DNA of 64,000 bases from Bacteroidota bacterium (lineage in GTDB: Bacteria > Bacteroidota > Bacteroidia > B-17B0 > Aurantibacillaceae): NCBI GenBank assembly GCA_021323535.1, contig JAJONO010000023.1, positions 1 through 64,000 on the forward strand. Direction: 5' to 3'. Below are positions 25,730 through 55,384 of this stretch, one piece after another. Within the stretch, counting starts at the first letter, position 1, and each line of letters opens with the position of its first letter. A model generated the notes under the pieces. That model saw nothing but the letters and a program-made list of their open reading frames with translations, had not been told where the DNA came from and did no database searches. The translations under genes were made by a program, and so were the position numbers.

Positions 25730-25796
25730 ATCCTCTGTGCTATCCGTGTAACATTCGGTAGGTTCCCATTCGTCTTATTTGATTACTTTTGGCTCG

Positions 25797-28688: not shown

Positions 28689-29401
28689 AAATACGATGCG
28701 TGATCATAGACGATGAACCTGATGCCATTGATGCGCTTCGCATTATGCTTACTGATTTTTTTGGCGACAGGGCCGACGTTTGCGGCACGGCTTCTTCGGT
28801 AAAAGAAGGAATTGATCTGATACGGCGAAGCAACCCTGATCTTGTATTCCTTGATATTCAGATGCCGGACGGAACGGGATTTACAGTAGCCGAAGCTTTT
28901 CCTGAAAAACATTTCAAGCTTGTTTTTGCAACAGCGTATAATCAGTATGCTATCAAAGCCATTAAATTAAAAGCAGAAGATTATTTACTGAAACCCGTAG
29001 ACCATACTGAACTGGAACTTTTGATTTCGCGCACCTGGAAAAAACTATCGGAAAACACTCCCGAAGAACTTCCTTACAGGATTAAAATCCCGGTAAAACA
29101 ATCCATTCTGTTCATAGACCCTGCCGATGTTCTTTACATCAAGGGCGATGGAAGATATTCTGAAATTTTCTTAAAAGGTTCTGTGAACTATGTCGTATCA
29201 AGAAATATCGGGCTCTACGAAAGCGAACTGGAAAAAAATAATTTCCTAAGGGTTCACAAATCGTATCTCGTGAACCTCAAATGCATCAGCAAACTTCTTC
29301 CCGAAGATAAAATCGTTTTGAGTGACGGCTCGCTCATTGAAATTTCGAGAAGAAAAAAACAAGAGCTCAAACAATTACTCGACCGCCGACAGGGAACCTG
29401 A
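28685..29401 (+). CDS. LytTR-family response regulator
   Basis: 'CVIIDDEPDAIDAL', 'PDLVFLDIQMPDGTGF', C-terminal LytTR 'FLRVHKSYLVNLKCISKLLPEDKIVLSDGSLIEISRRKK'; 4-bp overlap with kinase. Confidence 0.95.
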   Translation: MKIRCVIIDDEPDAIDALRIMLTDFFGDRADVCGTASSVKEGIDLIRRSNPDLVFLDIQMPDGTGFTVAEAFPEKHFKLVFATAYNQYAIKAIKLKAEDYLLKPVDHTELELLISRTWKKLSENTPEELPYRIKIPVKQSILFIDPADVLYIKGDGRYSEIFLKGSVNYVVSRNIGLYESELEKNNFLRVHKSYLVNLKCISKLLPEDKIVLSDGSLIEISRRKKQELKQLLDRRQGT

Positions 29402-31399: not shown

Positions 31400-31404
31400 C
31401 AGGC

Positions 31405-34698: not shown

Positions 34699-34699
34699 T

Positions 34700-37600
34700 A
34701 TGACCGTGATGAAAGATATTGCCTTCCACCAGTTTTTACTCGACAGCATAGAACGTGGAGGATTTACCAACGACGACGTTATTGCCGTTATCATGCCACT
34801 CCTTGAAGAAGTGAACTCATTTCACGCTTCAGGAAAAGTGGCGCCTTTGCATAGAATGGATTCTATCCTGATCACCAATGAAAAACTCGACATTGATGAG
34901 AATCTTGTAAAATCTCCAACAGATAATCTCTCTAAAATAAAAGAGATACTTCCCAACAATAATCAAACCTTTGAAGTCAGCGGACAACTCAAACAATCCA
35001 CCAGCATTGGAGAATATAATTCGGTTAAACTAAAGAACCGTCTCGTTGAAACAAATCTCAACGCGCCTATCACCATGCCGGTATATCTTCTCAACTATAA
35101 GTGTTTTGAGATGGAACTGGGTCACCACGATGCCGTAAGTGATATTTTTGTTTTGGGAATGATACTCGCGGGTCTTTCACTTGGGTTGGATCTTTCTCAG
35201 GAAGATGAACTCACCAGCTTTGTAGACAACCGCGAGAGTATGATCTATCTGAACAGTAAGATCCACCCTTCGATTGCAAACATCATTGTGGGAATGACAG
35301 AGCTCGACAGGAGAAAAAGATGGAAGGACCTTTCGGAGATCATTGACAATTTAAAAAATTACAGGGATTACAACCCTGAAGCTGAATTGGATCTTGCAAC
35401 TGTTGCCGCTGCCAAAAACACTCCCAAACAAAACAGGCAGCAATTTATCCAGGGAAAATTAAGGAACCGTCTCTTTGATACCAGCAGAAGGAACCGCCTT
35501 CTTTATTTTAAACCGAATCTGAAATTTTTAAATCTCTCCGTTTCTTCTGTTCCCGCGGTTTTAAATTACAAAAATATCGATCCTGATTCTCTCTTTTACT
35601 GGAACAAAGATGTTGCCGAAAAAATTACCAAAGGAAAAGACATTTCCCTCTCAAAATACATTCGCTTTGAAGACAATTCTTATATAGCTCCGTCTCTCGA
35701 CAGAATTCGACTTGAAGCCAACAAGGATGTGAACGAATATGGTTTCAGTCAGCTTAGACTTGTTGTAAGTTTTCTGAACTGGTACAACACCAAAGAACAG
35801 GTAACAGAGAAGATCACTTCACCTCTCGTTCTTGTTCCGGTGAATGTAGTAAAGAAAAAAGGAGTGAAGGACCAGTTTATCCTCGAGATAATAGACAGTG
35901 AAGCGGAAATAAATCCGGTGCTTTCTTTTATGCTCAAGGATCTGTATGATATCCGCCTCCCGGAAACCATACAGCTCTCTGAAACAAGTCTCGAAGATTT
36001 TTTTCAGAACCTGAAGATGCAGATCGAGAAAACACGTTCCGGAATTGTTCTTGAGTTTGTAAATAAACCAAAGATCAAGCTGATCCATGCCATGGCGAAA
36101 CAAACATTGTCGCAATACAAACGCAGGGTCAACAAGAACAGAAAAATACAATCTTTTCATAACCTCGATTATTCTTACAGTAACGAAAACTTTCAGCCGC
36201 TTGGTTTGCAGTTGTACAGGAACTATGTAAAGCCAGAATATTCTTCACTTGAATTCCTGATCAATAACGACATTAAACCTGCTACGGCTAACTTTACCGA
36301 TCCTGAGCTCAACGAAACCACACGCGAATTATATCAACTCGATGAAGGCGGATCCAACCCGTTCAAGTGGGAATTTGATACCTGCAATATGGTTCTTGGA
36401 AATTTTAATTACAAAAAAATGTCGTTGGTGAGGGACTACGATACTATCATTGACCAGAAAATTGAAAGCTCCGTATTTGATTCTTTATTCAGCGATCTTC
36501 CGAAAAATCTTACACAGGAAAAAACAAACGATGTAAATGTGGGAGAACAATTCAACGTTGTTCAATCTGATCCTACTCAGAATCGTTCGGTGATCTACTC
36601 ACGTAAGGGAGACAGTTATATTATTCAGGGACCACCAGGCACAGGAAAATCGCAAACCATTTCTAATCTTGTTGCCGACTATTTAGCCAGAGGAAAAAAA
36701 GTACTCTTTGTATGCGAAAAGAGAGCGGCCATCGACGTTGTATATTACCGTCTGAAACAACAGGGCCTCGATCAGTTGTGTTGCCTGATTCACGATTCGC
36801 AAACCGATAAAAAAGGATTTATTCTGAACCTGAAATCTACCTTCGAACAATTCACAAAGAAACCTATCCCGGTGAAAGATGCCGAGATCGACCGCAACAA
36901 TGTGATCACCAAGATAAATATTGAACTCGACCTCATCCGCAGATTTCACCAGAGCATGCAGCACAAACTAGATGATGCGGGTGTAATGATACGCGAATTG
37001 CTTGAGGTGCTGGTGCAGACAAAAAAGCATCTGCGACCTGAACACTTAAATATTTCGGATGGACTTTCGGGATACAAACAATGGTTAGAACACGGAGAAA
37101 CGATTGAAAAACTGGCCCTCACGTTAAAAGAAATTTCAGGTGAACCTTTCTTATCAAAACACCCTCTACGTTTTATCAATGAAAAAGTAATTCGTTATTC
37201 TAAAACAGATCATGAGCTACGGGAAGATCTTTCAAAATCGATGGATCTCCTCAATGAAATTTCAGAACGCCTTGAAATGACCGAGATTCCCGATTCGCTT
37301 AAGCAAACCGTAACTTCAATACGTGAACTTCTTGATCACGCTGCTTTCTTACTTCCTTTCAAGGAGCAGGATAAACTCGAACTGTTGACGCATAAAAGTC
37401 CGCTTCACCAGAAACTCACCGACTCTATCGATCAGTTAGAAAAATTAAATAGTTCGGTAAAGGAAGCGGCCGATAAAAATAAATACTGGAGCAATAAATT
37501 CTCCCAGGCCGATGCCGAGAACGCTTACGAAATTGTATGCAAACACGAAGGCTCTTTCTTTTCTTTCCTAAATGGAAATTTCAGACGCACAAAAAAATCG

Positions 37601-40165
37601 GTGCATCAATCGTATGATTTTACAAAGCACCAGGTAAAACCAACATTAAAACAATTACTCGGAAATTTAAAAGCCGAGTACGATGTAAGCAACAATTATC
37701 AGAAGGAAAAACTGAACATTGAGCAATTCTTTAAGCTTGGTGATGTTTTTGAGTTACTCAACAAACTCAAAGAAACGGGGTCGAAGGTCAACACGCAGGT
37801 TATTCAGTATGTAAAAAATCCTGAAACCAGTCTTTCTACTCTTAATGAATTACAGGGAATAAATTCGTTACTTACAACACTTACCACGCTTCTTAACGAC
37901 AATGCCGATAATATTTCTGAAAAAAATCTCAACGCGGTTGAGCAGATCCTTCAGAGCATGATCGACAAATCGAAAGATCTTGCCGCCATTGCTCCATTGG
38001 TAAAAGAACTCAATAACGCGCATGTTACCCTGAGAAAACTGATCCTGGAACAGGCATTAACACCTGTGCAGGTAAAAGGTTTGCTCACGAAAGCGAGTTT
38101 TGATAAATTTTATAATCTTAACCGGGAAGCCGGAAAAATTGAAGGCGAGAGAATTGTTTATCATACTCAGAAAATTAAAAAATTATATAAGGATCTTCTT
38201 CGTGTTAACGCCGCGTACATCATTTCAAAACAGCAGGACCGTCTTAATAAAATGATACAGCGTTCTGAAATGTCGATGGCCGGTAAAACAAATGCAGAGA
38301 AAGAAGAAAAACGTTCGTTGGTAGAAGGACGAAAAATCCTGGAGAATGAATTCGGAAAAACCATTCGTTTTAAATCTATACGTGATCTGGCTACTTCGGA
38401 GTCTGGGCAGATTATCCGTGAACTGAAACCGGTTTGGCTGATGAGTCCGCTCAGTGTTTCGGATACGCTTCCTTTAAAAACAGATTATTTTGATGTAGTT
38501 ATCTTCGATGAGGCCAGCCAGATTACTTTAGAAGAAGGAATTCCACCGGTTTACCGCGCGTCGCAGGCCATTATTGTGGGCGACGAAATGCAGATGCCTC
38601 CGAGTAATTTCTTCAGCAGCACATCTGCCGATCCGGATGATCTTTGGGAAGAAGATGAAGAAGAATCAAAGTTATTGTCTCTTGATGCGGATAGTTTCCT
38701 GACACAAGGCGCACGAAAATTTCCTTCGGTGATGCTAGGCTGGCACTATAGAAGTAAACACGAATCGCTTATTGGTTTTTCGAATGCTTCGTTCTATAAA
38801 AATGAATTACTAACCATTCCGGACGCACAGGACAATCATCGTGAACTGAAAGAGATCGTCGCTGAAAAAATGGAGAACGCTATTGAAAACGCGTCGTTGC
38901 TTCTTGATCGTCCTATCAGTTATCATTTTCTCAAACATGGGGTTTACGAAAGCAGGAGTAATTCTGCCGAAGCGGATTATATTGCCGAACTCATTCGCAA
39001 TTTATTGTTTCGCAAAAACGGCTTGAGCATTGGCGTGGTTGCTTTTTCGATGGAACAACAGGGAGAAATTGAGAACGCCGTGCAACGTTTATGCAATAGC
39101 GACAAAGAATTTGAAAAGATCATGGAAGAAGAATACAAGAGAATTGAAGACAATCAGTTCGTTGGTATTTTCTTTAAGAATCTTGAAAATGTTCAGGGCG
39201 ACGAGCGTGATATCATTATCATGAGCACCTGTTACGGTTACGATCCTAAAGGAAAAATGATCATGAATTTTGGCCCTATTAACCGTCGCGGCGGAGAAAA
39301 ACGGCTCAATGTAATTTTCTCGCGAGCCAAGAAACACATGTGTGTGGTGAGCTCGATCAAATACACCGATATTAAAAACGAGTACAACGAAGGCGCGAAT
39401 TATTTCAGAAAATATTTACAGTATGCTGCACACGCCAGCAAAGGCGATATGGAAATGGCATCGATGGTGCTGCAGTCTGTTATATCGGATGAAAACAGAA
39501 CTTCAAATGATCTGTATCAAAGCGAAGTCATCAACCAGTTGAGCGAAGCTTTAATAGAAAAAGGGTTCTTCACAAAAACACTTGTTGGCCAATCGCATTT
39601 TAAATGTCATATCGGTATCAAACAAAACCAAAGCGATACTTCTTACGTAGCTGGTATTTTAGTGGATGATCTGCTGCATTACACGAATAATGATTTACTG
39701 GAACAATATTTATTTAAACCTGATCTCTTACGTTACAGCGGTTGGAAAGTGGCGCAGGTATTCGCGAAGGACTGGTATGAAGACAGGGAAAAAGTGCTGA
39801 ATAAAATACTGGCTGTGATCAACAATACCGAAGAGCCTGAAATTGTTCATGAAGCTCCTGACGAAGAAGCTCAGATGCATGAACCTGAAAAAACTGAAGA
39901 AAGCAATCAGCCTGTTGCCGAAGAAAAGGAACCTGTTGTTGAGAAAAATTCTATAGAGACAGTGCGTTTAATAAGCACTGAAAATAACAGCCATAAATTC
40001 TGGGAGGCTTTTGTAGAGGAGAATAACCTGGTAATCACTTACGGAAAAGTAAATACAAAAGGGCAAAAGATCATTAAACCTTTTGACACCAAAGAACAGG
40101 CTGAGACAGAGAAACAAAAACTGGTGAGGCAGAAGCTGGGCAAGGGGTATAAGGAGGATAGATAG
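34700..40165 (+). CDS. Giant SF1 (DNA2/NAM7-like) helicase: kinase-C-lobe-like N-terminus, DUF4011-like region, AAA helicase, Vsr-like remnant, WGR
   Basis: Walker A 'IIQGPPGTGKSQTISNLVADYLA', Walker B 'DVVIFDEASQITLEEGIPPVYRASQAIIVGDEMQMPPSNFF', 'NVQGDERDIIIMSTCYG', 'RRGGEKRLNVIFSRAKKHMCVVSS'; 'LRNRLFDTSRRNRLLYFKP' DUF4011-like; C-terminal WGR-like 'HKFWEAFVEENNLVITYGKVNTKGQKIIKPFDTKEQAETEKQKLVRQKLGKGY'. Confidence 0.88.
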   Translation: MTVMKDIAFHQFLLDSIERGGFTNDDVIAVIMPLLEEVNSFHASGKVAPLHRMDSILITNEKLDIDENLVKSPTDNLSKIKEILPNNNQTFEVSGQLKQSTSIGEYNSVKLKNRLVETNLNAPITMPVYLLNYKCFEMELGHHDAVSDIFVLGMILAGLSLGLDLSQEDELTSFVDNRESMIYLNSKIHPSIANIIVGMTELDRRKRWKDLSEIIDNLKNYRDYNPEAELDLATVAAAKNTPKQNRQQFIQGKLRNRLFDTSRRNRLLYFKPNLKFLNLSVSSVPAVLNYKNIDPDSLFYWNKDVAEKITKGKDISLSKYIRFEDNSYIAPSLDRIRLEANKDVNEYGFSQLRLVVSFLNWYNTKEQVTEKITSPLVLVPVNVVKKKGVKDQFILEIIDSEAEINPVLSFMLKDLYDIRLPETIQLSETSLEDFFQNLKMQIEKTRSGIVLEFVNKPKIKLIHAMAKQTLSQYKRRVNKNRKIQSFHNLDYSYSNENFQPLGLQLYRNYVKPEYSSLEFLINNDIKPATANFTDPELNETTRELYQLDEGGSNPFKWEFDTCNMVLGNFNYKKMSLVRDYDTIIDQKIESSVFDSLFSDLPKNLTQEKTNDVNVGEQFNVVQSDPTQNRSVIYSRKGDSYIIQGPPGTGKSQTISNLVADYLARGKKVLFVCEKRAAIDVVYYRLKQQGLDQLCCLIHDSQTDKKGFILNLKSTFEQFTKKPIPVKDAEIDRNNVITKINIELDLIRRFHQSMQHKLDDAGVMIRELLEVLVQTKKHLRPEHLNISDGLSGYKQWLEHGETIEKLALTLKEISGEPFLSKHPLRFINEKVIRYSKTDHELREDLSKSMDLLNEISERLEMTEIPDSLKQTVTSIRELLDHAAFLLPFKEQDKLELLTHKSPLHQKLTDSIDQLEKLNSSVKEAADKNKYWSNKFSQADAENAYEIVCKHEGSFFSFLNGNFRRTKKSVHQSYDFTKHQVKPTLKQLLGNLKAEYDVSNNYQKEKLNIEQFFKLGDVFELLNKLKETGSKVNTQVIQYVKNPETSLSTLNELQGINSLLTTLTTLLNDNADNISEKNLNAVEQILQSMIDKSKDLAAIAPLVKELNNAHVTLRKLILEQALTPVQVKGLLTKASFDKFYNLNREAGKIEGERIVYHTQKIKKLYKDLLRVNAAYIISKQQDRLNKMIQRSEMSMAGKTNAEKEEKRSLVEGRKILENEFGKTIRFKSIRDLATSESGQIIRELKPVWLMSPLSVSDTLPLKTDYFDVVIFDEASQITLEEGIPPVYRASQAIIVGDEMQMPPSNFFSSTSADPDDLWEEDEEESKLLSLDADSFLTQGARKFPSVMLGWHYRSKHESLIGFSNASFYKNELLTIPDAQDNHRELKEIVAEKMENAIENASLLLDRPISYHFLKHGVYESRSNSAEADYIAELIRNLLFRKNGLSIGVVAFSMEQQGEIENAVQRLCNSDKEFEKIMEEEYKRIEDNQFVGIFFKNLENVQGDERDIIIMSTCYGYDPKGKMIMNFGPINRRGGEKRLNVIFSRAKKHMCVVSSIKYTDIKNEYNEGANYFRKYLQYAAHASKGDMEMASMVLQSVISDENRTSNDLYQSEVINQLSEALIEKGFFTKTLVGQSHFKCHIGIKQNQSDTSYVAGILVDDLLHYTNNDLLEQYLFKPDLLRYSGWKVAQVFAKDWYEDREKVLNKILAVINNTEEPEIVHEAPDEEAQMHEPEKTEESNQPVAEEKEPVVEKNSIETVRLISTENNSHKFWEAFVEENNLVITYGKVNTKGQKIIKPFDTKEQAETEKQKLVRQKLGKGYKEDR

Positions 40166-41708: not shown

Positions 41709-42566
41709 TTACCTGGCCTCCTTTACAAGCTTCTTTACATGTGAAACTGAGCCTGTTTTGTACCTTAAAAAGTAACAGCCCGAAGGTAGATCGGGATCAA
41801 AACCGATCTTCATTTTCTTGTCCTTTACCTCCACATTCATTTTAACTTCTCTTCCCAACAGGTCAGACATCATAATATCCGAAACATCAGCCTCGTTCAG
41901 CTCAATGTAAATTGCATTACTTATCGGATTAGGGTAAATCCTGGGATAATCTTTACGCCCTTCCCTCAATCCGGTAGTGATCTGTGATGAAGAATATTCT
42001 TTGATAAGACAGGTATCCTTTGTACTGCATTGCAGTTTTATCCAGCCATAAGCTGTCATGTTTCCGTTCTGATATTTCACGCCCAGATATTTATCACCGC
42101 CAATCCAATCGTTCACATTTTTATTCCCACCGCCAGCTCCGGAATGATCGGTAAAGTATAAGGTGGTGTTATCCCATACAGTTCCTGAAGCATTGATTTG
42201 CTCACCAGGGTTCAAAGGTTTTGCCACTTTTGTAACATTCCAACCCGGTCCACCCGGTACAAATACCGAATCCCACCTTCCAAAGCTGATGGATACATTC
42301 GGATCGAGGGAAGTTACCTTAATGTAGGCCGCGCTTCCCGAAGAGCTCACTGCGCCATGCGCCGTAAATTCAAGGTCGTATGAAGGGTTGTTAAAGATAC
42401 TCACACTATAAGTATCATTGGTATATGGAACAACCACGTAATTTATCATCACATCAGGGTTGATGTCCATGTAATTTGCAAGAAATGTTCCTGCGGTATA
42501 AACCTGGCTATAAGATCTTGTTAAAAAGGCGATAAAAAACAGGAATAAATTTTTTTTCATGAGCAA
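41709..42566 (-). CDS. Secreted protein with T9SS type A sorting domain
   Basis: Signal peptide; 'RIYPNPISNAIYIEL...LPSGCYFLRYKTGSVSHVKKLVKEAR'. Confidence 0.85.
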   Translation of the reverse strand: MLMKKNLFLFFIAFLTRSYSQVYTAGTFLANYMDINPDVMINYVVVPYTNDTYSVSIFNNPSYDLEFTAHGAVSSSGSAAYIKVTSLDPNVSISFGRWDSVFVPGGPGWNVTKVAKPLNPGEQINASGTVWDNTTLYFTDHSGAGGGNKNVNDWIGGDKYLGVKYQNGNMTAYGWIKLQCSTKDTCLIKEYSSSQITTGLREGRKDYPRIYPNPISNAIYIELNEADVSDIMMSDLLGREVKMNVEVKDKKMKIGFDPDLPSGCYFLRYKTGSVSHVKKLVKEAR

Positions 42567-42645: not shown

Positions 42646-45357
42646 CTAAGAAGTGATTTCGTGAATGAAAAGCTTCCCTTGGTTAGAAAGTGTGGCAAAG
42701 GAATTTCTTTTTACCCGAAGCACATCAATGATATCGACATCTGTTTCCACAACACAAATTGGCTCCGGCTGATCGTTCTGAATATCAAAAACAGTGATCT
42801 TCCTGAGTTCAACAGTCAAAAACTTATTATCGGGAATATGTTTTATCATTACCAGTTTTTGCCCCCCTTCACCGAAATAATGGCTATTAGCTTTAATATC
42901 TTGTGAATCGGCCCTGTAAAGTAAGCAGCCAAATTCGGTTGACGCCATAAAACGTAAAGCGGCGTGATGATCCTGCAATTCCAGTTTGTTGATCACGGCT
43001 CCCGCGTAAAAATCCTGTACGAGCCCTGTTTCATCTATCCTGAAAAGAAGATCGGCGCATTTGAAAAAAATGAATTCTCTACGGTAGAGCAATTCCAACT
43101 CAATAGAACTAAATACGAATTCAGAAGCGGTTTCACTTGAGAAACGACAATCCACAATATTGATAAGACTTCCGCTGAACGAGTAATTATGCAGGGAAAC
43201 TGTTCTGTCATCTCTGCAAAGAAATGTGATCCGGTCCCTTCCGGTAATTACCGCGCCCATTGAACTTTCGGGTATCCAGTTAGGAAATTCGACAATGATA
43301 TGATGCGAAAATTCGCGGGTAACATCAAATAATTTTTTCGCGTGAGAAGTATTTCTCTTCGAACACACAAAAACGCGGTGGGTAAAAAATGTGTCGGTCA
43401 CCACATCCTGCAGATAGAATAATTCGTCGGTCATAGCCGAATGTTCTACATAACCGTTCCAGTTTCCTCTCGCGAAACATATCTGCCGTCCTTTATAACC
43501 AAAAGCCAGGAACTCGTCGCGAATGTTTATAACCTTGATCCAGTTAGTACCCTCCGGCAATTTTATTTCCGATACCGGCTGATTGTATTTTGTAATTTCT
43601 TTCGCGCTGCTCAGGTAACGGTTAAAATCAGAAGGAAGAAAACGATCATCTGGTACAAAACTTTTTAGTTTATACAGGGCCGAAGAATTTCCCTTCATTA
43701 CCTGTTCGCCTACAAGTGAGTACGCCATTTCTTTAGTGGCCGCCCTCATTTCTTCATTTTCTTTTTTGTCGGCAATTCCCGCAAGTACATTTAAAAAGCT
43801 TGACCGTTTTGAGGAAGGTGTTTTGTTGTTATAAACATTATTGATATGCGCCACAAGATCGGCTTCGTCTTTCTGCAGTTTATCAAAGTATTTAGTGAGG
43901 CAGGCTTCCCTGTTGGAAGAATTTTCCCATCCTTCCAGTAATGTTGCCGTAGCTCTTTCGTGTTCTTTCTTTTTTTCTTCCTGCAAGCGGGCCGCCTCAA
44001 TATAATCCTGCGCCGTTAAGGCATTCTCAACACATTTTTCATAATAGATATTTGCATTGTCCGATCGCTCGAGCAAAACATAAAGATCGCCCACTTTTTC
44101 ATTACGGTTGAGCTCAATGTAAAGATCAATGGCTTCGTTGTACAAACCTCCCGACTCGAGACACTCCGCCGCGGCACCTTTATTGTTGAGATGATCTTTA
44201 TAAACGGTCGCTGCCTCGCGGTACATTTTCCCTCTCTTCAAAACATCGGCAGCAGAATGAAAATCATTGAGCAAGTGCGCATAGATGTAGGCAGCCTTTT
44301 TATAATTCTCGTTTTCAATTTCAGTTTGCGCCGCTTTAATATATTTTGTACGAAGATCGTTGTAAAATTTACTAAGGTCCCAGCCATCTACTTTATCACC
44401 ACCTCCCAATTTACCTAAATTAAAACTGGTATCGTTCCTGGTAAGTTTCGCCGATGGTGGCGCCTCTCCCCTGTTGAAATAATTACTTCCAAGAGGAATA
44501 GCATATTGAAGCGCTTCATCTGAATTTTTATCAAACATATCAAGAAGGCGTTTCAGTTCCGACTCACGTTTTTTCTCGAGGTCCTCGATCTTGTTGTCCA
44601 TCCACTTGCTGAACTTATCCATAAGTCCTTCTTCCTCTTTTCCTGAGCCTCCACCCGAATCTCCACCTGCCCCTCCCGATCCGGCTTTCGATCCTGCTCC
44701 AAGTTTACCAATGCCTTCGGTAAGATTTTTTAATCCTTTTAATCCGGCCAGACTTATATCGTCTTTCAATTTTTCAAGACCACTTCTTTCTTTTTCTTTA
44801 AGATCATCAATGGACTTTGTGCCAACATCTTCTTTTAATGATTCTATCAATTGTTCTGGCGGCGGCTCTTCTACATGGATACGATTCAACGGAAGAAAAA
44901 CAGGTTTTACATCGGGAACATCGAGACATCTGGTTTCCATTGGTGGTTCCAGGGTAATAAGATCGTCTACCGTTTTTCTATCCTGCTGTTCATAACCGAT
45001 CAAACCTATCGAAGGATGAAACACCATCACATCAAATAAAATAAGTTGCTTCAATTCATCAGTACTTGTTTCAGGAAACAGGGTTGAATGAAGCGGAATA
45101 AACAATTTTTCGCCTACACATCTGTAAGGAAATTTTACTGTTTCCCTTCTGCATTTTGGTTTTTCATGAAACATTACAAATAATCCGGCGGGAGAAACAG
45201 AATCTAATCCTTTAGGAACAACGTAACAGGAAATATGTTCATACGACACTTCATAACGGTCGAGTTCTCTTAACCATTCCGCAGGATCGGTTCCCCTGAT
45301 AAACGCGCCGTTTATAAGGAAATTGGATTGTTCGATATGTCGTAAACTGAGTTCCAC
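42646..45357 (-). CDS. bpX/TPR/beta-propeller-like component of MoxR-vWA ternary system (903 aa)
   Basis: N-terminal domain, Gly/Ser-rich linker 'GAGSKAGSGGAGGDSGGGSG', TPR-like region 'AAYIYAHLLNDFHSAADVLKRGKMYREAATVYKDHLNNKGAAAECLESGGLYNEAIDLYIEL', C-terminal beta-rich repeats. GTG start abuts the upstream stop codon. Confidence 0.65.
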   Translation of the reverse strand: MELSLRHIEQSNFLINGAFIRGTDPAEWLRELDRYEVSYEHISCYVVPKGLDSVSPAGLFVMFHEKPKCRRETVKFPYRCVGEKLFIPLHSTLFPETSTDELKQLILFDVMVFHPSIGLIGYEQQDRKTVDDLITLEPPMETRCLDVPDVKPVFLPLNRIHVEEPPPEQLIESLKEDVGTKSIDDLKEKERSGLEKLKDDISLAGLKGLKNLTEGIGKLGAGSKAGSGGAGGDSGGGSGKEEEGLMDKFSKWMDNKIEDLEKKRESELKRLLDMFDKNSDEALQYAIPLGSNYFNRGEAPPSAKLTRNDTSFNLGKLGGGDKVDGWDLSKFYNDLRTKYIKAAQTEIENENYKKAAYIYAHLLNDFHSAADVLKRGKMYREAATVYKDHLNNKGAAAECLESGGLYNEAIDLYIELNRNEKVGDLYVLLERSDNANIYYEKCVENALTAQDYIEAARLQEEKKKEHERATATLLEGWENSSNREACLTKYFDKLQKDEADLVAHINNVYNNKTPSSKRSSFLNVLAGIADKKENEEMRAATKEMAYSLVGEQVMKGNSSALYKLKSFVPDDRFLPSDFNRYLSSAKEITKYNQPVSEIKLPEGTNWIKVINIRDEFLAFGYKGRQICFARGNWNGYVEHSAMTDELFYLQDVVTDTFFTHRVFVCSKRNTSHAKKLFDVTREFSHHIIVEFPNWIPESSMGAVITGRDRITFLCRDDRTVSLHNYSFSGSLINIVDCRFSSETASEFVFSSIELELLYRREFIFFKCADLLFRIDETGLVQDFYAGAVINKLELQDHHAALRFMASTEFGCLLYRADSQDIKANSHYFGEGGQKLVMIKHIPDNKFLTVELRKITVFDIQNDQPEPICVVETDVDIIDVLRVKRNSFATLSNQGKLFIHEITS

Positions 45358-47805
45358 TTATTCTAATGCTTTAATGTATTTAAGAATGTAATTCATATAA
45401 AACTCTGTAGCCGTTAACTCGCTTGATTTTTTAGGATCGAAGAAATAATGTGAGCCGCAGACATTTCCATCGGAGGCCCATGCCGCCAGCGACTGACCAA
45501 TGATCATGACAATGGTAATTTCTGGAATTTCCTTCACCGAACTTTTCAAATGAAGAAAACCTCTTGAATCTATGATCAATGTACTTCCATTCTTCCAGTT
45601 GAAACGGTAGAATTTTACAAGCTCGTTATTTAATCCTGCGAAAGAAACTATATCCTGCGTTTGAAAGGAAGTTTTAACTTCGAAATGAATGTGTGTGTCG
45701 AGGAAATTAATTATTCCTGAAGGATTGAGTTTTAAAATCCTTGAATCAATATGAAGATTATTGTTATGATCAATAAATACCCTGTTGGCTTTGCTGAAAA
45801 CACTGTAACCATTATTGATGAATTTTTTAATGGCCCCATCACTGGTGTAACGTACGAGATGTTTAATAGGTTCGGATTTCCATTGTCCTGGCATTGTGTC
45901 TCCATTCAATCCATTAATTGCAATCGTACCGGCCGATTTAAGATTGACATAAAATACGTTGCTATTAAATCTTACATCCGTTACATCAGGATATGTACCT
46001 GCTATCTCATAACGCTTCACTAAATGTGTTGTTACTTCAATCCTGTACAGCACTAATTGATTTTGTTCTGAATGAACAAGCAGAAAAATATCCGGTAATT
46101 CGTAATAACCGTAATAATACATGCCAGGTTCAATACCATACTCCAATTCAATTGCACCTTTAAAAGGATCATTCCAGAAAAGCAAGCGGTTATCCTGCGT
46201 AACACCAATGACTCCAAGATGATTGATCTGAATCGGGTTTTTATTCTTGACCTTAACTTTTGCAGTAGGAAATAATAACGGCGAAGGATCACAATTAAAA
46301 AATGCGGGCGCGTTAAAATATTTCTTTTTGATTTTCTGATGTCCCGGCTGTGATGTTAATATTTCATCCAGATCGAATTCCGCTTCACAAATCTGTTTTC
46401 TTCTTTTTTCGAGGTAATGAAACATCTGTAATTGCCCGTTCCTGTTTACAGAAATAACATAATTCAGTGGTTTCTTAAGGTTGGAAATTGTTGCAGAAAA
46501 TTCCTTCGCCGAAATAATATCTTCATCGGCAATGTAAATACATTCGTGTTCGTCCTTATTGTTCAGTGACTCCATGAATCCCGATAGAGATGTAGCGGAA
46601 CTTAATCCCGGATCTATTACCGTAAGTGATTTGATCACCCCTTCTTTAGTGCTCATATCCAGTTCCGTAAATTTCTTTTCTCCAAGAGCAAATACGAAAG
46701 TGGGATTTTTTGATTTGTTTCCTTCCGAACAGGCCAAGCCCGCCGAAACCGCAAACAATCTTGGCGCACCCCACATTTTAAGTGTGGTATCAATGAGTAC
46801 AAATCGTTTTTTATTTTTATTGTCAGGGAGTTCTTCTCTTCTGAAATACAGGGCCTCGTTATTTGCCAATCTTGCCATTAATGTATCATCGTCGTTAGCA
46901 AGTTCACTTAATAACAGGCGATCAAAATTTCCACGGTTGGTAATATCAGAAACGCCGCCAAACAACTGATCGCTGCTTCCTTTAAAGTGAATAGGGATAT
47001 TAAGTGCTGCAATTAATTTCCTTGTCAGATTTGTAAGACCATAGGTTCTTTCATCGGCGGCGAGCTGGTCGAGAAGATCGCCTTCCTCTTCCTGCAGAGG
47101 AACTTCAAGATCCAGAGGGTCGGGCACTTCAGTGACGCCGGTGTCAAGCACCATTTTTAATTTTTCGAGATACGGATAATCACAAAACGCTTCGTGAAGA
47201 TCGTTGAGATCGTATCTGAAATACTGCCGGGTTATTCCCGATTTATAATAATGTACATGCGCTCCTTCTTTGTAATCCGTTACAGAAAGATTCGGAATGA
47301 TATTTCTGAAAACAGCGTCGTCGAGTGCGCCACTTTCAAATTCTTCAAGCACACCTTTCGATACATCTTTATCCCTCTTCTTGGTAGATTTACTGAAAAT
47401 AGTTTGTATCAGAAGAATTCGTTTATTCCCCGAACGTAAATCTTCAGGCAATTCAGAAACAAGATCCAGAAATTTTAATGTATCCTCAAGATAATTTTTT
47501 ACTGTATCATTGATCGGATTCCCTTTATCGTTTTCTTCAATGTTCCTTAAAATTCCCATCAGAGTTCCACGCGCACCCTGGTTCGCTTTCCAGTTTCCCC
47601 TACAGGCTGCAAGCAACATCAGCAAAGATCCTATTCTTGGCAAACCTTCACCCGATATTGCTCTTAAGATCTGGATAAAATCCTGGCGGTAACAAATAGT
47701 GTAACCGTCGGTCCAGTCAATAATACGGCCATCATCTGCCCACTTCCAAAAATAGTTTTCGGGAGGAGAAAAATAAGTATACGCTATGCTCCTGTATTCC
47801 TTCAT
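45358..47805 (-). CDS. vWA-like protein with N-terminal bpX-like and C-terminal propeller-like domains (815 aa)
   Basis: vWA-like core 'KKRFVLIDTTLKMWGAPRLFAVSAGLACSEG...ECIYIADEDI'; C-terminal 'GVIGVTQDNRLLFWNDPFKGAIELEYGI' beta repeats. 4-bp overlap with upstream gene. Confidence 0.7.
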   Translation of the reverse strand: MKEYRSIAYTYFSPPENYFWKWADDGRIIDWTDGYTICYRQDFIQILRAISGEGLPRIGSLLMLLAACRGNWKANQGARGTLMGILRNIEENDKGNPINDTVKNYLEDTLKFLDLVSELPEDLRSGNKRILLIQTIFSKSTKKRDKDVSKGVLEEFESGALDDAVFRNIIPNLSVTDYKEGAHVHYYKSGITRQYFRYDLNDLHEAFCDYPYLEKLKMVLDTGVTEVPDPLDLEVPLQEEEGDLLDQLAADERTYGLTNLTRKLIAALNIPIHFKGSSDQLFGGVSDITNRGNFDRLLLSELANDDDTLMARLANNEALYFRREELPDNKNKKRFVLIDTTLKMWGAPRLFAVSAGLACSEGNKSKNPTFVFALGEKKFTELDMSTKEGVIKSLTVIDPGLSSATSLSGFMESLNNKDEHECIYIADEDIISAKEFSATISNLKKPLNYVISVNRNGQLQMFHYLEKRRKQICEAEFDLDEILTSQPGHQKIKKKYFNAPAFFNCDPSPLLFPTAKVKVKNKNPIQINHLGVIGVTQDNRLLFWNDPFKGAIELEYGIEPGMYYYGYYELPDIFLLVHSEQNQLVLYRIEVTTHLVKRYEIAGTYPDVTDVRFNSNVFYVNLKSAGTIAINGLNGDTMPGQWKSEPIKHLVRYTSDGAIKKFINNGYSVFSKANRVFIDHNNNLHIDSRILKLNPSGIINFLDTHIHFEVKTSFQTQDIVSFAGLNNELVKFYRFNWKNGSTLIIDSRGFLHLKSSVKEIPEITIVMIIGQSLAAWASDGNVCGSHYFFDPKKSSELTATEFYMNYILKYIKALE

Positions 47806-48515
47806 GAGATCTTCCGGTGAAGTGAATTAATAACTAATCGTGATGTATAGGCAAAAGAAGATAAACTGATTCTCTCACAATGTCCCTCTTTATTAAAAAA
47901 CAAAACAGAATCATGTTCCTCTCCGGCTTTCTTCGAAATAATGGCTGCAAGCGAAGGTGGATCAAAATCAAAGCCAAGAGGCAATAAAATATTTCCATTT
48001 CTCCAGAAGTGTTTCCCGGGTGCGGAAATAAACTGTGAATTAAGAATGATCACTCTTTTGTCTTCGGTAACGGCGAATTTTGTTCTTTGCAGTCTAATCT
48101 CAGAAACGGTATCCGCTAACATTTTCCATTCGTTCCAGGAAATCTCGGTAGCATAAATATCACGTTCCTGTTCGCTTACTTTTAATCCGATCCTGAATTT
48201 ATCTCTCAGTCTGCCTGAATATGCCGCGACAGGAAAATTTACCGGCAACAGATCCTTCAATGGTTTCCAGTTAAGTTTTTCAAGTTTTGCAACTGGTGTT
48301 ATTCCACTCACAGGAAATAACTGGTCATCGTCTCCAATAATAAAATTATTAATGGAAGGAATTCTCGCGGTGACAGGTTCTTCGTCGCTGGTAAAAAAAA
48401 TTCCACGCACCCAGATCTCATCATCGCGTAGCGCGCCCAGTAACCCAGGCACACCGCGTACTTCGGCAAGAGCGCGCTTATCTTTCAGTTCAACTATTTT
48501 TAAAAGTTCTCTCAC
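47802..48515 (-). CDS. bpX-like small protein of MoxR-vWA ternary system (237 aa)
   Basis: Position between MoxR and vWA genes with 4-bp overlaps on both sides; beta-rich sequence, no catalytic motif. Confidence 0.6.
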   Translation of the reverse strand: MRELLKIVELKDKRALAEVRGVPGLLGALRDDEIWVRGIFFTSDEEPVTARIPSINNFIIGDDDQLFPVSGITPVAKLEKLNWKPLKDLLPVNFPVAAYSGRLRDKFRIGLKVSEQERDIYATEISWNEWKMLADTVSEIRLQRTKFAVTEDKRVIILNSQFISAPGKHFWRNGNILLPLGFDFDPPSLAAIISKKAGEEHDSVLFFNKEGHCERISLSSFAYTSRLVINSLHRKIS

Positions 48516-49666
48516 TCTGTCATCATCACTTTTTTCCAGAGATCATTGATCGGTTTCTGAACATACGATCTTTGTTCTTCGTTGCTGATCCATTCTGATC
48601 GTCCGCTGAGATAATGCAAACGATCTTTGATAACAGAACGTTCCGATAAACTGATAGTTTCTCTCTCCCATTCACCGCTGAGCTTTAAAATTTCGGCGTA
48701 CAATTCATCAGCGTTGGGAACACTGTTGATCAAAGCTCTCGGATGAACGCCCTGTGTTTCACTTTCGCTTTCAATTGCAGAATTTACAATTGCGGCGATG
48801 ACTTCCACCTGTTCTTCGGTATCCCAGATGTAACGGAGCACCCACATGTCGGAAAGAATGGCTTTTTTACGTTTACACAATAAAGCGCTTGCTGCAATAA
48901 GTCGTTGTAATTTTACGGCACGGCGATCCGATACAGGAACACCGGCGTTTCTGAGTTTCTGAATGAGTTCAATGTATGCCGGTTTTATTTCATCGAGGTT
49001 CACTTCCGAAACCTGGCTTTGCAAGACCACAATGTCTTCGGCTTTAATATTTGGTTTTTCAGATATTGTTCTCTGCTCCAGTTTCCATCCTGCATTGAGA
49101 ACAGCATTGAGATGAACAGGATCAACATAATTACATTGCACACGAACGAGGAAACGATCGAACAGGGCCTGTAAAGCTTCGTCCTGCGGCAAGTGATTAC
49201 TTGCGCCAATGATCATAAGCGACGGAATATTTTTTGTTTCACGTCCGCGGCGGAACACTTTTTCATTAAGTACCATTAGCAAACTATTCAGGATAGCGCT
49301 ATTCGCATTAAGCAATTCATCAAGGAAAATGAGCGATGCTTCAGGAAGCATTCCTTCGGTGTTTGTTACTAAATCTCCTTCGCGTAGTTTGCGTATATCA
49401 AACGGACCAAACAATTCATTTGGCTCTGTAAATCGTGTGAGAAGGTATTCGAAATATTTTCCATGAAGAAGTTTTGACATTTCCTTTACCATGGCACTTT
49501 TAGCTGTGCCGGGAGGACCAAGAAGAAATAAATTCTCTCTTCCTGCAAGACAAATTCCCATGAGGTCAATGATGTCGTCTTTTCCTACGAATGTTTGTTT
49601 AAGGTGATCGAGAATGCCGTTGAGTTTATCAGTTAAAACCACATCCTCCTGTTTCATAATTTCCAT
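48512..49666 (-). CDS. MoxR/RavA-family AAA+ ATPase
   Basis: Walker A 'LLGPPGTAKSAMVKEMS', Walker B 'LIFLDELLNANSAILNSLLMVLNEKVFRRGRETKNIPSLMIIGASNHLPQDEALQALFDRFLVRV' (RavA-like). Confidence 0.92.
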   Translation of the reverse strand: MEIMKQEDVVLTDKLNGILDHLKQTFVGKDDIIDLMGICLAGRENLFLLGPPGTAKSAMVKEMSKLLHGKYFEYLLTRFTEPNELFGPFDIRKLREGDLVTNTEGMLPEASLIFLDELLNANSAILNSLLMVLNEKVFRRGRETKNIPSLMIIGASNHLPQDEALQALFDRFLVRVQCNYVDPVHLNAVLNAGWKLEQRTISEKPNIKAEDIVVLQSQVSEVNLDEIKPAYIELIQKLRNAGVPVSDRRAVKLQRLIAASALLCKRKKAILSDMWVLRYIWDTEEQVEVIAAIVNSAIESESETQGVHPRALINSVPNADELYAEILKLSGEWERETISLSERSVIKDRLHYLSGRSEWISNEEQRSYVQKPINDLWKKVMMTE

Positions 49667-49670
49667 ACTG

Positions 49671-50324
49671 TTATTGTGTTGTTTTTGTTTCCAGGTAGCC
49701 TGGCCATAGTTCTTTAGAGTAGTTGCCAAGAACGGCTTCCACTTCCTCTTTTAAATTGTTGTTATTTATTTTAGATAGATCTTTTTTATCAATGATCCTG
49801 TCTACATAACTCTTCATAAGCGATCTGTTATCAAAGCTCACTGAACTTTCAGTCTCCGGATTTGTTTTGATACCAACAGAAGAGAAGGGCCATTGTTCGG
49901 CCAGTTGTTTTATTCTTACAACCAGCGGATCATCGGGAGCCAGGCTTACAGCGAATCTTAAAACATCAGGCAGATAACGCAGACAAAGATCGGCAGAGTA
50001 AACAGACGAAGGTGTTGACTCGCTTTTAAAATCCGTAATTCGTTTTTCAATCTCTTCCGCTTCAAGATTTCGTATCATGACAAACTGTATGCATCTGTAT
50101 AAGATCATACTTCCCCACAACGCAGCATCGGCATCAAATTCGGGAACACCCGAAGGCATTTCAGATTTTGATTGCTCATAGATGTTTTTTAAAATGGAAA
50201 CAGATTCCTGTTTTTCGGTCTCTGAAAATTCAGACAATTCCTTTTTCACAGTCACTTCGCCATTCTCAAACAATCCCAACAGGAAAGAAGATAAGCTCGC
50301 ATTCATAACGTTTAAAGATAGCAA
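49671..50324 (-). CDS. Uncharacterised helical protein heading the MoxR operon (217 aa)
   Basis: Minus-strand ORF ending 4 nt before the preferred MoxR start; mostly helical composition. Confidence 0.65.
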   Translation of the reverse strand: MLSLNVMNASLSSFLLGLFENGEVTVKKELSEFSETEKQESVSILKNIYEQSKSEMPSGVPEFDADAALWGSMILYRCIQFVMIRNLEAEEIEKRITDFKSESTPSSVYSADLCLRYLPDVLRFAVSLAPDDPLVVRIKQLAEQWPFSSVGIKTNPETESSVSFDNRSLMKSYVDRIIDKKDLSKINNNNLKEEVEAVLGNYSKELWPGYLETKTTQ

Positions 50325-52625: not shown

Positions 52626-53393
52626 TCAGAGTTTTTTTAAAATTTCAAGTACATGTTCTTTTTTTCTTCGTGAAATCGGAACCTCGGTACCATCTTTCAT
52701 GAGAATAAATCCGTTTTCTTTTTTGATATACGATTTAATATGCTTGAGATTGACAAGATGCGATTGGTGCACACGTTCAAAACCAAATTCTCTGAGAAGA
52801 TCTTCATAATCCTTAAGAGTTTTGGATACCATCAACGATTTATCCTTCACAAAATAAAACTTCGTATAGTTATGTTCAGATTCACAGCGCGTAATTTCTT
52901 CAACCGGACAGATCCTTACTTCGTTCATGGTGGAAAGGCAGATCTTTTTCTCAGAATCGGTCCTTGACATGTTATCGAGCAATACTTTATATTGATTTGG
53001 ATTTCCTTTTACAAGTTTAAGATTTTTCGCTTTCTCAACGGCTTCTTTTAATTCCTCCGAAATAATGGGCTTGAGCAGGTAATCCACAGCGCTGAAACGA
53101 AATGCCTGTATAGCAAACTGGTTAAAGGCCGTTGTAAAAATAATGCAGAGTTTATTGAAATCTGCTCTTGGAAGATCGCTATCGAGCAGTTTTAAAAGAT
53201 CAAAAGCGTTTCCGTCGGACAGTTGAATATCAAGAAAAATAATGTCAGGTTTTATGTCCGCGATCATTTTCCTGGCTTCGCCAATGCTTCCGCAATCACC
53301 TAACAATTTTACTTCAGGACAGTTTGTCCCCAACACCGATTTAAATGCGGAAAGAAATTTTTTTTCGTCTTCTATGATAACTGCGCTTAGCAA
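52626..53393 (-). CDS. LytTR-family response regulator
   Basis: 'AVIIEDEKKFLSAFKS', 'PDIIFLDIQLSDGNAFDLL', 'FERVHQSHLVNLKHIKSYIKKENGFILMKDGTEVPISRRKK'. Confidence 0.94.
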   Translation of the reverse strand: MLSAVIIEDEKKFLSAFKSVLGTNCPEVKLLGDCGSIGEARKMIADIKPDIIFLDIQLSDGNAFDLLKLLDSDLPRADFNKLCIIFTTAFNQFAIQAFRFSAVDYLLKPIISEELKEAVEKAKNLKLVKGNPNQYKVLLDNMSRTDSEKKICLSTMNEVRICPVEEITRCESEHNYTKFYFVKDKSLMVSKTLKDYEDLLREFGFERVHQSHLVNLKHIKSYIKKENGFILMKDGTEVPISRRKKEHVLEILKKL

Positions 53394-53512
53394 AACTATT
53401 TACTTTTAAATTTAGTCATTTTATCGCAATGTATCCTGGCTCTTGTATCTTGACTCTTGGTTCCCTTTCATGGAGCCAAGATGCAAGAATCAAGAGCCGG
53501 AATAACGTCGTA

Positions 53513-55384
53513 TTACACGTAATCCAACGGAAACCTTAGTGTTACTATTGTACCTGTTATTTCTTGTTTTTCGTTTAATCTGTCATTCGTTGCGATCATA
53601 ATTTTTTCTTTATTCATGGAGTTAATGATCTCTGTTCTTTCTTCAGTTATCTTCATGGCCAGTGAGCGATGTGTTTGTCCGAAACCGGTTTTTCGGTTCA
53701 TAGACTCTACCCTGCCAATACCATCGTCGGTTACTTCACATACAAGATGTTCATCATTATGCACATAAAATCTTACCCATACATGTCCTTTTTCGCTCTT
53801 GGGAACAATGCCATGCAAAATAGAATTTTCAACAAATGGCTGCACAAACATTGGAGGAATGGCCATGGAGGAATCTATTTCGGGATCAGTTGTAATCTCG
53901 AAAGTAAATTTATCGTTATAACGTAATTGCTGAAGGAACAAATACGAATTCAGCATTTTTGCTTCCTGTTGTACTGATACAAACTGTTCGCGCGATTGTT
54001 CGAGATTGTACCTGATGAGTCTCGAAAAAACACCAAGGTACTCTATGGCCTTGTCCTTATCATTTTCAGAAATAAAACCACTGATGGACCCTAGTGAATT
54101 AAAAATAAAATGCGGATCCATCTGTAACGCGAGCGCGTTTCTTTCCAGTTCAAAGTTTCTGCGTTCAAGCGCGCTTTTCTTTTTGATCTGTTGCCTGTTA
54201 TACAATAAGAAGCCAAACAACCCCATTACAACCGCAAGAATAAAAATACTATAGAAAAGCTGTTTCTGTCTTTTGTTTTCCGCGTTCTGCACTTCCTGTC
54301 CCGCTTTCAGTAATCCAATCTCTTTTTCCTTTTTCTGATTTTCATACCTGGCTTCCAGTTCGGCAATACTCTTAATACTGGACTCGTTCTTAATACTGTC
54401 TTCCATTAACTTGTATAACTTGTAATATGCATGCGCCTCTTTGAAATTGTTACGCGCTTCGTAATGATTGGACATAAACAAATACGCTTTTTTAATATTG
54501 ACCTTACTGTTCAGTTCTTTTGATAGTTCAAGTTGTCTCGTATAACACTCAAGCGCTTTTGGCGGCTGCTTTAGTGAATCATAGATCACTCCTATATCGG
54601 AATAGGCTTCGGCGGCGCCACGTTTATCTCCCAGTTCGGTAAGAATGGTGCAGCCTTTCCAAAGAAGCTCAAGTGCTTTTTTATAATTTTTCTGGCTGGA
54701 ATAAATTGCTCCAAGATTTGTATAAATAAGTGCCACACCTTGTTTATCGTTTATTTTTTCATCTATTTTGAGAGCGGCGTTAAAGTAATTCAACGCTGTG
54801 GAATAATCTTTCAGCTGATAACAGGTAAGACCAATGTTATAGAGCAGTTTGGCATGCAGGTATTCATCTTCCCCAAACCCTTTCGCTTTTTCAATATCGA
54901 GATACGACTTCAGAGCCATATCATGTCTGCCCTGAAGATAATACACATTGGCCAATGACATTTTTGAAGAAGTGATACCTCTTTTATCGTTGATCTCTTC
55001 ACGTATCTTAAGAGCGTTCAGATAATTTCCAAGAGCCTTTGGATATTCTCCCTGATCGCACAGAATGATCCCAAGGTTACTCATGATGTCGGCTTCCGAT
55101 TTTTTATCTCCGGCCTGTCGGGCAACTATAATCGCTTTCTCGAAATAGCTTCTTGCTTTCACGTAATCACTTTTGTTCAGATATGAAATCCCCATACGAT
55201 TCAGCGCAACACATACACCCTGCTTATATTCCAGTTTTTCAGCCAACTGAATTCCAAGTTCAAGATACACCAGGGCCTTTTCGTGTTCATGTTCGTTGAT
55301 TAAATATCCACCAACGTCGTTTAAGCGCTTCACACGGTTGGTGTCGTCCCCGGATTTCTGAAGTTCCACAAGCAGGGAATCCAC
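53513..55384 (-). CDS. TPR-containing LytS-type sensor histidine kinase; true N-terminus probably extends upstream to about 55.45 kb
   Basis: TPR repeats, TM, 'LQMDPHFIFNSLGSISGFISENDKDKAIEYLGVFSRLIRYNLEQSREQFVSV', 'DDGIGRVES'. ORF track starts at a GTG. Confidence 0.93.
   Translation of the reverse strand: MDSLLVELQKSGDDTNRVKRLNDVGGYLINEHEHEKALVYLELGIQLAEKLEYKQGVCVALNRMGISYLNKSDYVKARSYFEKAIIVARQAGDKKSEADIMSNLGIILCDQGEYPKALGNYLNALKIREEINDKRGITSSKMSLANVYYLQGRHDMALKSYLDIEKAKGFGEDEYLHAKLLYNIGLTCYQLKDYSTALNYFNAALKIDEKINDKQGVALIYTNLGAIYSSQKNYKKALELLWKGCTILTELGDKRGAAEAYSDIGVIYDSLKQPPKALECYTRQLELSKELNSKVNIKKAYLFMSNHYEARNNFKEAHAYYKLYKLMEDSIKNESSIKSIAELEARYENQKKEKEIGLLKAGQEVQNAENKRQKQLFYSIFILAVVMGLFGFLLYNRQQIKKKSALERRNFELERNALALQMDPHFIFNSLGSISGFISENDKDKAIEYLGVFSRLIRYNLEQSREQFVSVQQEAKMLNSYLFLQQLRYNDKFTFEITTDPEIDSSMAIPPMFVQPFVENSILHGIVPKSEKGHVWVRFYVHNDEHLVCEVTDDGIGRVESMNRKTGFGQTHRSLAMKITEERTEIINSMNKEKIMIATNDRLNEKQEITGTIVTLRFPLDYV

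What the first reader, a model, noticed from the sequence alone, without database searches (positions are those of the whole stretch)
42646..50324. Five-gene MoxR-vWA-beta-propeller (bpX-type) ternary system operon
Seen: five minus-strand genes with near-zero or 4-bp junctions: 217-aa helical protein, RavA-like MoxR ATPase, 237-aa beta-rich protein, vWA plus propeller (815 aa), and bpX/TPR/propeller (903 aa). Established knowledge: MoxR-vWA-bpX ternary systems were described by Aravind and colleagues as predicted NTP-dependent conflict systems, and bpX families exist in Pfam. Inference: this is a member, with the MoxR ATPase possibly remodelling a vWA/propeller scaffold. Biochemical function remains essentially unknown, and the exact bpX families cannot be assigned by eye.
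Basis: partly seen in the sequence, partly recalled or inferred. Interest (0 to 1): 0.8.

Follow-up and report, generated by a model that had tools for sequence, protein, structure and literature searches.

The report
Known five-gene MoxR-vWA-propeller operon
This is a complete example of a five-gene bacterial protein-remodelling operon predicted in 2020 but not found experimentally studied; comparing about 95 relatives shows the gene order never breaks and that the operon is nearly universal in Chryseobacterium, which fits a standing cell function at least as well as the proposed role in fighting phages.

Summary
Confirmed. The five minus-strand genes at 42646-50324 match, in order, Pfam bpX4, bpMoxR, bpX2, bpX0+vWA+bpX1, and bpX3+TPR+propeller, all far above the curated cut-offs where Pfam has a model. 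The operon is an ordinary member of the MoxR-vWA-beta-propeller ternary systems of Kaur et al. 2020 (PMC7159879), including the odd P-loop GPPGTAKS. I found no experimental work on such a system.

What the comparison adds. (1) Gene order is the same in about 94 independent loci. (2) The ATPase tree splits into two fully supported clades. The window's clade mostly has a ~900-aa third protein ending in a propeller; the other has a ~570-aa one without it. (3) Membrane segments sit at one hot spot of the third protein and come and go; the window has none. (4) Propellers and linker evolve fastest, all under purifying selection. (5) The system is rare in the window's family (3/87) and class (15/396) but present in 92/100 Chryseobacterium species, at a mostly conserved site. 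Neighbours are not visibly enriched in defence genes.

Best reading: a RavA-type ATPase plus divergent vWA co-chaperone that remodels its own TPR/propeller scaffold. An anti-phage role is neither shown nor favoured.

The parts
49671..50324 (-). bpX4, all-helical protein (217 codons from TTG)
   Evidence: PF19920, 203.9 bits, E 2.9e-60
48512..49729 (-). bpMoxR, RavA-type AAA+ ATPase; probable true start ATG at 49666 (384 aa)
   Evidence: PF20030, 336 bits, E 6.9e-101; nearest solved structure RavA, E 3e-55; start codon
49496..49519 (-). Walker A GPPGTAKS, the GXXXTAKS variant typical of this system
   Evidence: motif scan; column nearly invariant in relatives; variant described in PMC7159879
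49316..49333 (-). Walker B LIFLDE
   Evidence: motif scan; D and E invariant
47802..48515 (-). bpX2, beta-rich protein, 237 aa
   Evidence: PF19918, 170.9 bits
45358..47805 (-). vWA component: bpX0 - vWA - propeller - bpX1, 815 aa
   Evidence: PF19915 96.2 bits and PF19917 85.6 bits; model, mean pLDDT 86.8
47299..47706 (-). bpX0 helical N-domain (aa 34-169)
46378..46809 (-). divergent vWA core (aa ~333-476), degenerate MIDAS D339-x-T-x-K followed by W345-G346
   Evidence: Asp339, Trp345 and Gly346 invariant in 88/88 relatives; Lys/Arg in place of the second Ser in most; ViaA alignment in register; topology
45616..46236 (-). propeller-like beta region (aa ~524-730) followed by bpX1
   Evidence: strand pattern of model; Foldseek hits to BamB, TolB and WD40 propellers, prob ~1.0 but TM only ~0.25
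45364..45606 (-). bpX1 C-terminal beta domain (aa 734-814)
   Evidence: PF19917
42646..45357 (-). third component, bpX3 - linker - TPR solenoid - propeller, 903 aa
   Evidence: PF19919 134.1 bits; model, mean pLDDT 86.4
44836..45357 (-). bpX3 N-domain (aa 1-174)
   Evidence: moderately conserved
44623..44835 (-). variable linker (aa 175-245): amphipathic helix and Gly-rich stretch here; site of membrane segments in relatives
44467..44622 (-). conserved segment LEKKRESELKRLLDMFDKNSDEALQYAIPL...RG (aa ~246-297)
   Evidence: conserved across long, short and split forms of the third component
43603..44364 (-). TPR/alpha-solenoid (aa 332-585)
   Evidence: model; profile match to IFT144/WDR19 solenoid, E 5e-7
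42658..43593 (-). C-terminal beta-propeller (aa 589-900), absent from clade-B relatives
   Evidence: model; Foldseek to virginiamycin B lyase propeller, E 6e-9, TMt 0.64; missing in short forms

Best explanation
The operon encodes one multi-protein machine of the MoxR-vWA-beta-propeller ternary kind. Shown by sequence or structure prediction: a RavA-type AAA+ ATPase with intact Walker A and B motifs; a vWA co-chaperone with a degenerate MIDAS, a helical bpX0 head and a propeller/bpX1 tail; a third protein with a bpX3 domain, a variable linker, a conserved segment, a TPR solenoid and a propeller; and two accessory proteins, bpX2 and bpX4. Inferred: the ATPase forms a hexameric ring; the vWA protein docks on it as NorD does on NorQ; ATP-driven movement remodels the third protein around the conserved segment between linker and solenoid. 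That would switch a scaffold that sits on or near the inner membrane (through transmembrane segments in many relatives, and possibly an amphipathic helix here) between an idle and an active shape. The fast-evolving propellers would read the client or signal. Its biological use is most likely stress- or envelope-related quality control or regulation: near-core in Chryseobacterium, acquired sporadically elsewhere. I do not think a dedicated anti-phage weapon is the likelier use.
For: Domain assignment. GPPGTAKS variant. Confident solenoid-propeller and helical-vWA-beta models. vWA register with ViaA and invariant D339, W345, G346. Invariant gene order in about 94 loci. Conserved segment kept in long, short and split forms of the third protein. 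Transmembrane segments clustered at the linker. MoxR slowest, propellers and linker fastest, no segment with dN/dS above 1. Near-core, single-copy and mostly syntenic in Chryseobacterium: 92/100 genomes, upstream neighbours shared by most of 22 loci, dN/dS 0.03-0.11 (genus named by a 98% 16S match). No visible enrichment of PADLOC families among nearest neighbours. The NorQD mechanism, in which the AAA+ ring twists and stretches a linker of its vWA partner, is published (PMC13036017).
Against: No client, interaction or phenotype was tested, and no complex was modelled. The window protein has no transmembrane segment and the amphipathic helix is only suggestive. The propeller of the vWA protein superposes poorly on solved propellers (TM ~0.25). 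In the window's own family the system is rare (3/87), which is what an accessory or conflict module would show; relatives occur on a Hymenobacter plasmid and in a clade-specific region of genomic plasticity of Pseudomonas syringae (PMC9677677). A candidate defence helicase pair sits next to two of the loci.
Confidence: 0.5

Rival explanations
1. A biological-conflict (anti-phage or anti-plasmid) system, as Kaur et al. proposed: the propellers sense an invader, the MoxR-vWA pair sets a threshold, and the third protein's variable membrane/linker region acts as effector (membrane disruption or containment).
For: Published prediction (PMC7159879). Patchy in most of the phylum (3/87 in family, 15/396 in class). 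Both clades occur in the same families, and window and G067 carry different clades within one family. Found on a Hymenobacter plasmid. Variable transmembrane content at one hot spot. A rare peptidase-helicase pair scoring to PADLOC candidate PDC-S37 lies within 3 kb in two independent loci (genome co-occurrence P 0.016 on small counts).
Against: Near-core, mostly syntenic and single-copy in Chryseobacterium. All segments under purifying selection. No visible excess of defence families among 139 nearest neighbours compared with 140 control genes. No PADLOC model of a known system for any of the five proteins. No recognisable effector domain.
Confidence: 0.3
2. A dedicated maturation chaperone for one partner enzyme or membrane complex, as NorQD, CbbQO, CoxDE or RavA-ViaA.
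For: MoxR is closest to RavA and the vWA core aligns with ViaA; every characterised MoxR-vWA pair named in the literature read here remodels a target.
Against: No client gene is conserved next to the operon across lineages, whereas NorQD, CbbQO and CoxDE are encoded beside their targets (established knowledge). The five proteins travel as a closed unit.
Confidence: 0.13
3. A coat- or tether-like structural scaffold: the solenoid-plus-propeller third protein polymerises on membranes and the ATPase disassembles it.
For: Profile match of the solenoid to IFT144/WDR19 (E 5e-7) and weak clathrin and Gemin5 repeat hits; propeller fused in clade A; transmembrane segments in many relatives.
Against: TPR similarity is generic; the domain order is the reverse of coat proteins (solenoid first); the propeller is absent in clade B.
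Confidence: 0.05

Closest known systems
MoxR-vWA-beta-propeller ternary systems (Kaur, Burroughs, Iyer and Aravind 2020, subsystem 4; Pfam bpX and bpMoxR)
   Same: All components, P-loop variant, vWA protein with helical N-region and beta C-region, third protein with TPR and propeller, accessory helical and beta-rich proteins
   Different: No transmembrane segment in the third protein here and no L12/ClpS insertion in the vWA protein (7 of 56 relatives have one). The bpX3 N-domain is not the hypervariable part; the linker and propellers are
RavA-ViaA of E. coli
   Same: Closest solved MoxR ATPase (E 3e-55); vWA partner in the same operon, MIDAS in register
   Different: The match covers only RavA residues 20-306 of 500; the vWA protein carries propeller and bpX domains; three extra conserved genes
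NorQ-NorD (PMC13036017)
   Same: MoxR-class ring plus multi-domain vWA protein with a long linker; the mechanistic template used here
   Different: NorQD matures one named enzyme; here no client gene is linked
FtsH ternary systems (Kaur subsystem 3)
   Same: Shared GXXXTAKS P-loop and divergent vWA; ivWA model hits two relatives weakly
   Different: No FtsH-type ATPase in the operon

Membership tests
MoxR-vWA-beta-propeller ternary system | MoxR-clade ATPase of the bpMoxR family | tested here: met
   PF20030 336 bits against cut-off 27
MoxR-vWA-beta-propeller ternary system | GXXXTAKS P-loop (reported as frequent) | tested here: met
   GPPGTAKS
MoxR-vWA-beta-propeller ternary system | vWA domain in the second component | tested here: met
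   Model topology, ViaA register, weak ivWA hit in relatives; standard Pfam VWA models do not hit, so moderate strength
[quoted passage not shown]
   Strand-rich region aa 524-785 with propeller hits at prob ~1.0 but TM ~0.25; bpX1 itself met
MoxR-vWA-beta-propeller ternary system | Third component with N-terminal domain, TPR and propeller | tested here: met
   PF19919, model, Foldseek propeller
MoxR-vWA-beta-propeller ternary system | Membrane-spanning segment in the third component (typical; the survey shows it is optional) | tested here: not met
   No hydropathy peak above 1.6 in the window; peaks in 27/48 long and 12/31 short relatives, so not a defining feature
MoxR-vWA-beta-propeller ternary system | Linked extra helical and mixed alpha/beta proteins (bpX4, bpX2) | tested here: met
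MoxR-vWA-beta-propeller ternary system | Function in biological conflict | not testable with these tools
   Indirect tests do not favour it
RavA-ViaA | RavA full length including its C-terminal regions | tested here: not met
   Match ends at RavA residue 306; RavA equivalog score 166.6 against cut-off 681
VMAP or iSTAND ternary systems | VMAP or iSTAND third component | tested here: not met
   Third component is bpX3; no VMAP or STAND hit in Pfam
FtsH ternary systems | Double FtsH-type ATPase gene | tested here: not met
   No such domain in the five proteins or in the flanking genes scanned with Pfam

The most novel reading that the evidence does not exclude
The beta-propeller ternary system is not primarily a conflict system. 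It is a membrane-proximal AAA+ remodelling machine with a standing physiological role, fixed in Chryseobacterium and passed around sporadically in other Bacteroidota, with two anciently separated forms that differ in whether the scaffold protein carries its own propeller.
Probability: 0.4. Interest if true: 0.6.

Novelty: new member of a known kind. Interest (0 to 1): 0.4.

Why it matters
The system has Pfam families and a published prediction but I found no experiment on it. The survey gives a test bed: a genus (Chryseobacterium) in which 92 of 100 species keep one copy, so a knockout in a lab strain can separate a physiological role from an anti-phage role. It also points to residues worth mutating: Walker B, vWA D339 and W345, and the EAL-x-YAIPL...RG segment.

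Tried and rejected
Defence-island test: PADLOC scan of 139 nearest neighbours of 46 representative loci against 140 control genes from five of the same genomes showed no visible excess; the control happened to include a CBASS-like locus and the sample is small. Arms-race test: no segment with dN/dS above 1 in close pairs, though synonymous sites are near saturation in many. Sixth conserved gene: none across lineages; neighbours recur mainly among close relatives. Empty site in congeners: G011 and G016 keep the response-regulator / TPR-kinase / T9SS block without the operon, but no clean insertion point was found. vWA by standard Pfam models: no hit. Literature by Pfam accession or bpX name: only a passing mention of bpX5 and bpX6 in a Pseudomonas syringae plasticity region. 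Foldseek on the whole vWA model returned only beta-rich hits in the list shown; the vWA core could not be isolated for its own search.

Full report
OBSERVATION. The window holds five minus-strand ORFs at 49671-50324, 48512-49729, 47802-48515, 45358-47805 and 42646-45357. The vWA and bpX3 genes abut; MoxR/bpX2 and bpX2/vWA overlap by 4 bp. The 59-bp overlap of the first two is an artefact of taking MoxR from a TTG; the ATG at codon 22 (49666) lies just after the bpX4 stop and gives 384 aa, the length of its relatives. Pfam assigns bpX4, bpMoxR, bpX2, bpX0 plus bpX1, and bpX3, each well above its curated cut-off. PADLOC has no model of a known system for them, and NCBIfam only sees a RavA-like ATPase below cut-off.

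STRUCTURE. With alignments of 67 and 56 relatives, AlphaFold2 gave mean pLDDT 86.4 for the third protein and 86.8 for the vWA protein. The third protein is an N-domain of strands and helices (to ~133), a poorly ordered linker (142-243), a long helix (245-277), an alpha-solenoid (332-585) and a beta-propeller (589-900). Foldseek places the propeller with virginiamycin B lyase and NHL/WD40 propellers; a sequence profile places the solenoid near IFT144/WDR19 (E 5e-7), which I read as generic TPR kinship. The vWA protein is a helical bpX0 head, an alternating alpha/beta core at 333-476 and a strand-rich tail ending in bpX1. Propeller hits for that tail have probability near 1 but TM only ~0.25, so its blade structure is not settled.

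ACTIVE SITES. The ATPase keeps Walker A in the GPPGTAKS form, Walker B LIFLDE and many invariant columns. Its nearest solved relative is RavA (E 3e-55 over residues 20-306). In the vWA core, Asp339, Trp345 and Gly346 are invariant in 88 relatives; position 341 is Ser or Thr and position 343 is mostly Lys or Arg, so the MIDAS DxSxS has become DxTxK-x-WG. The hhalign match to ViaA aligns this motif in register, at low probability (22%). Pfam VWA models do not detect it; ivWA of the FtsH systems hits two relatives weakly, which agrees with the kinship proposed in PMC7159879.

RELATIVES. A scan of 84,980 species genomes found at least 543 encoded relatives of the ATPase, of which the best 80 were kept; 17 stretches came from whole genomes. 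In about 94 independent loci the components present always occur as bpX4, MoxR, bpX2, vWA, bpX3 on one strand. Departures: loci cut by contig ends, a few with a broken or split bpX3, one over-extended MoxR ORF call (L129), single inserted genes in L091 and L136, and a small extra gene between bpX4 and MoxR in four of 22 Chryseobacterium loci. The ATPase tree has two clades with 100/100 support (35 and 59 rows). The window's clade mostly has a third protein of ~850-1000 aa with a propeller; the other mostly has ~570 aa without it, or in Chryseobacterium and some Flavobacterium two genes. Saprospiraceae, Hymenobacteraceae and the window's own family occur in both clades; window and G023 (same genus) are in the first, G067 (same family) in the second.

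VARIABILITY. Among long-form pairs with MoxR over 90% identical, median identity is 78% for the bpX3 N-domain, 76% for the solenoid, 52% for its propeller, 45% for the vWA protein's propeller region and 42% for the linker. So the fast parts are propellers and linker rather than the N-domain itself. All have dN/dS well below 1, though many pairs are near saturation. The linker carries one or more transmembrane-like segments in many relatives, nine in G180 (L070), and none in the window. In the window it has an amphipathic helix with hydrophobic moment 0.50. Next to it lies the segment EAL-x-YAIPL...RG, kept in all forms.

DISTRIBUTION. bpX2, which rings in none of 14 control genomes, is in 3 of 87 genomes of the window's family, 15 of 396 of the class, 1 of 7 of family f33, but 92 of 100 species of genus g29. 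A 16S gene from g29 matches Chryseobacterium fluminis at 98%, so g29 is Chryseobacterium. There the operon sits beside a tRNA cluster in the loci checked, with upstream neighbours shared by most of 22 loci; MoxR is 90% identical at the median and dN/dS is 0.03-0.11 per gene. In the whole family it is in 32 of 150 genomes and 4 of 27 genera, so it looks gained once or a few times and then kept. One copy is on a Hymenobacter plasmid. No phage record in the collection holds a close relative: best identity 34%.

CONFLICT OR NOT. Kaur et al. infer conflict from variable regions and distribution. My indirect tests point both ways: patchiness and clade mixing for; near-core status in Chryseobacterium, purifying selection and the absence of a visible defence-gene excess among neighbours against. 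One positive hint: a peptidase/helicase pair 2.5 kb from the window operon recurs 264 bp from the clade-B operon of G261 (46-49% identity). The pair is rare (7/396), and excluding the window genome it co-occurs with bpX2 in 2 genomes (hypergeometric P 0.016), on very small numbers.

MECHANISM. By analogy with NorQD, where the AAA+ ring turns a vWA finger and strains a linker (PMC13036017), I propose that the bpMoxR ring and vWA protein remodel the third protein at the conserved segment beside the linker, switching a membrane-proximal scaffold whose propellers read a client or signal. Gene content, motifs and order are shown; complex formation, client and phenotype are inferred.

VERDICT. A textbook member of a known, computationally predicted system with no experiment found. 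The new information is comparative: invariant order, two clades, optional membrane anchoring, and fixation in Chryseobacterium, which makes the function testable.

Noticed in passing
window 33496-40165, +: Pair of a 400-aa M48/SprT-like zinc-peptidase protein and an 1831-aa DUF4011 - SF1 helicase - MTES_1575 nuclease - WGR protein (PADLOC candidate PDC-S37, 667 bits). A homologous pair sits 264 bp from the bpX operon in L058 (932-7605); found in only 7 of 396 class genomes.
   Followed up: partly
L061:13056-15789 and L064:12880-15601 (Chryseobacterium): Third component split into two membrane proteins: bpX3 domain plus 4 TM-like segments, and 2 TM-like segments plus TPR.
   Followed up: partly
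L070:3464-7261: Third component of 1265 aa with about nine TM-like segments inserted between the bpX3 domain and the solenoid.
   Followed up: no
L212-L231: In the Chryseobacterium loci examined with Rfam the operon lies next to a large tRNA cluster, in L212 also next to an rRNA operon.
   Followed up: partly
L091: A contig binned as Thermoanaerobaculia (Acidobacteriota) carries an operon nested among Bacteroidota in the tree: transfer or mis-binning; it has an 1185-aa ORF inserted between bpX2 and vWA.
   Followed up: no
window 25779-29401 and 52626-55384: Two histidine-kinase / LytTR response-regulator pairs (one with Reg_prop propeller and Y_Y_Y domains) and several T9SS-sorted proteins (29510-33333, 41709-42566, 55631-58384) flank the operon.
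   Followed up: no
genome contig C111:34146-38618: Same genome carries an ordinary MoxR gene with several VWA genes (looks like a Bat-type operon), separate from the bpX system.
   Followed up: no
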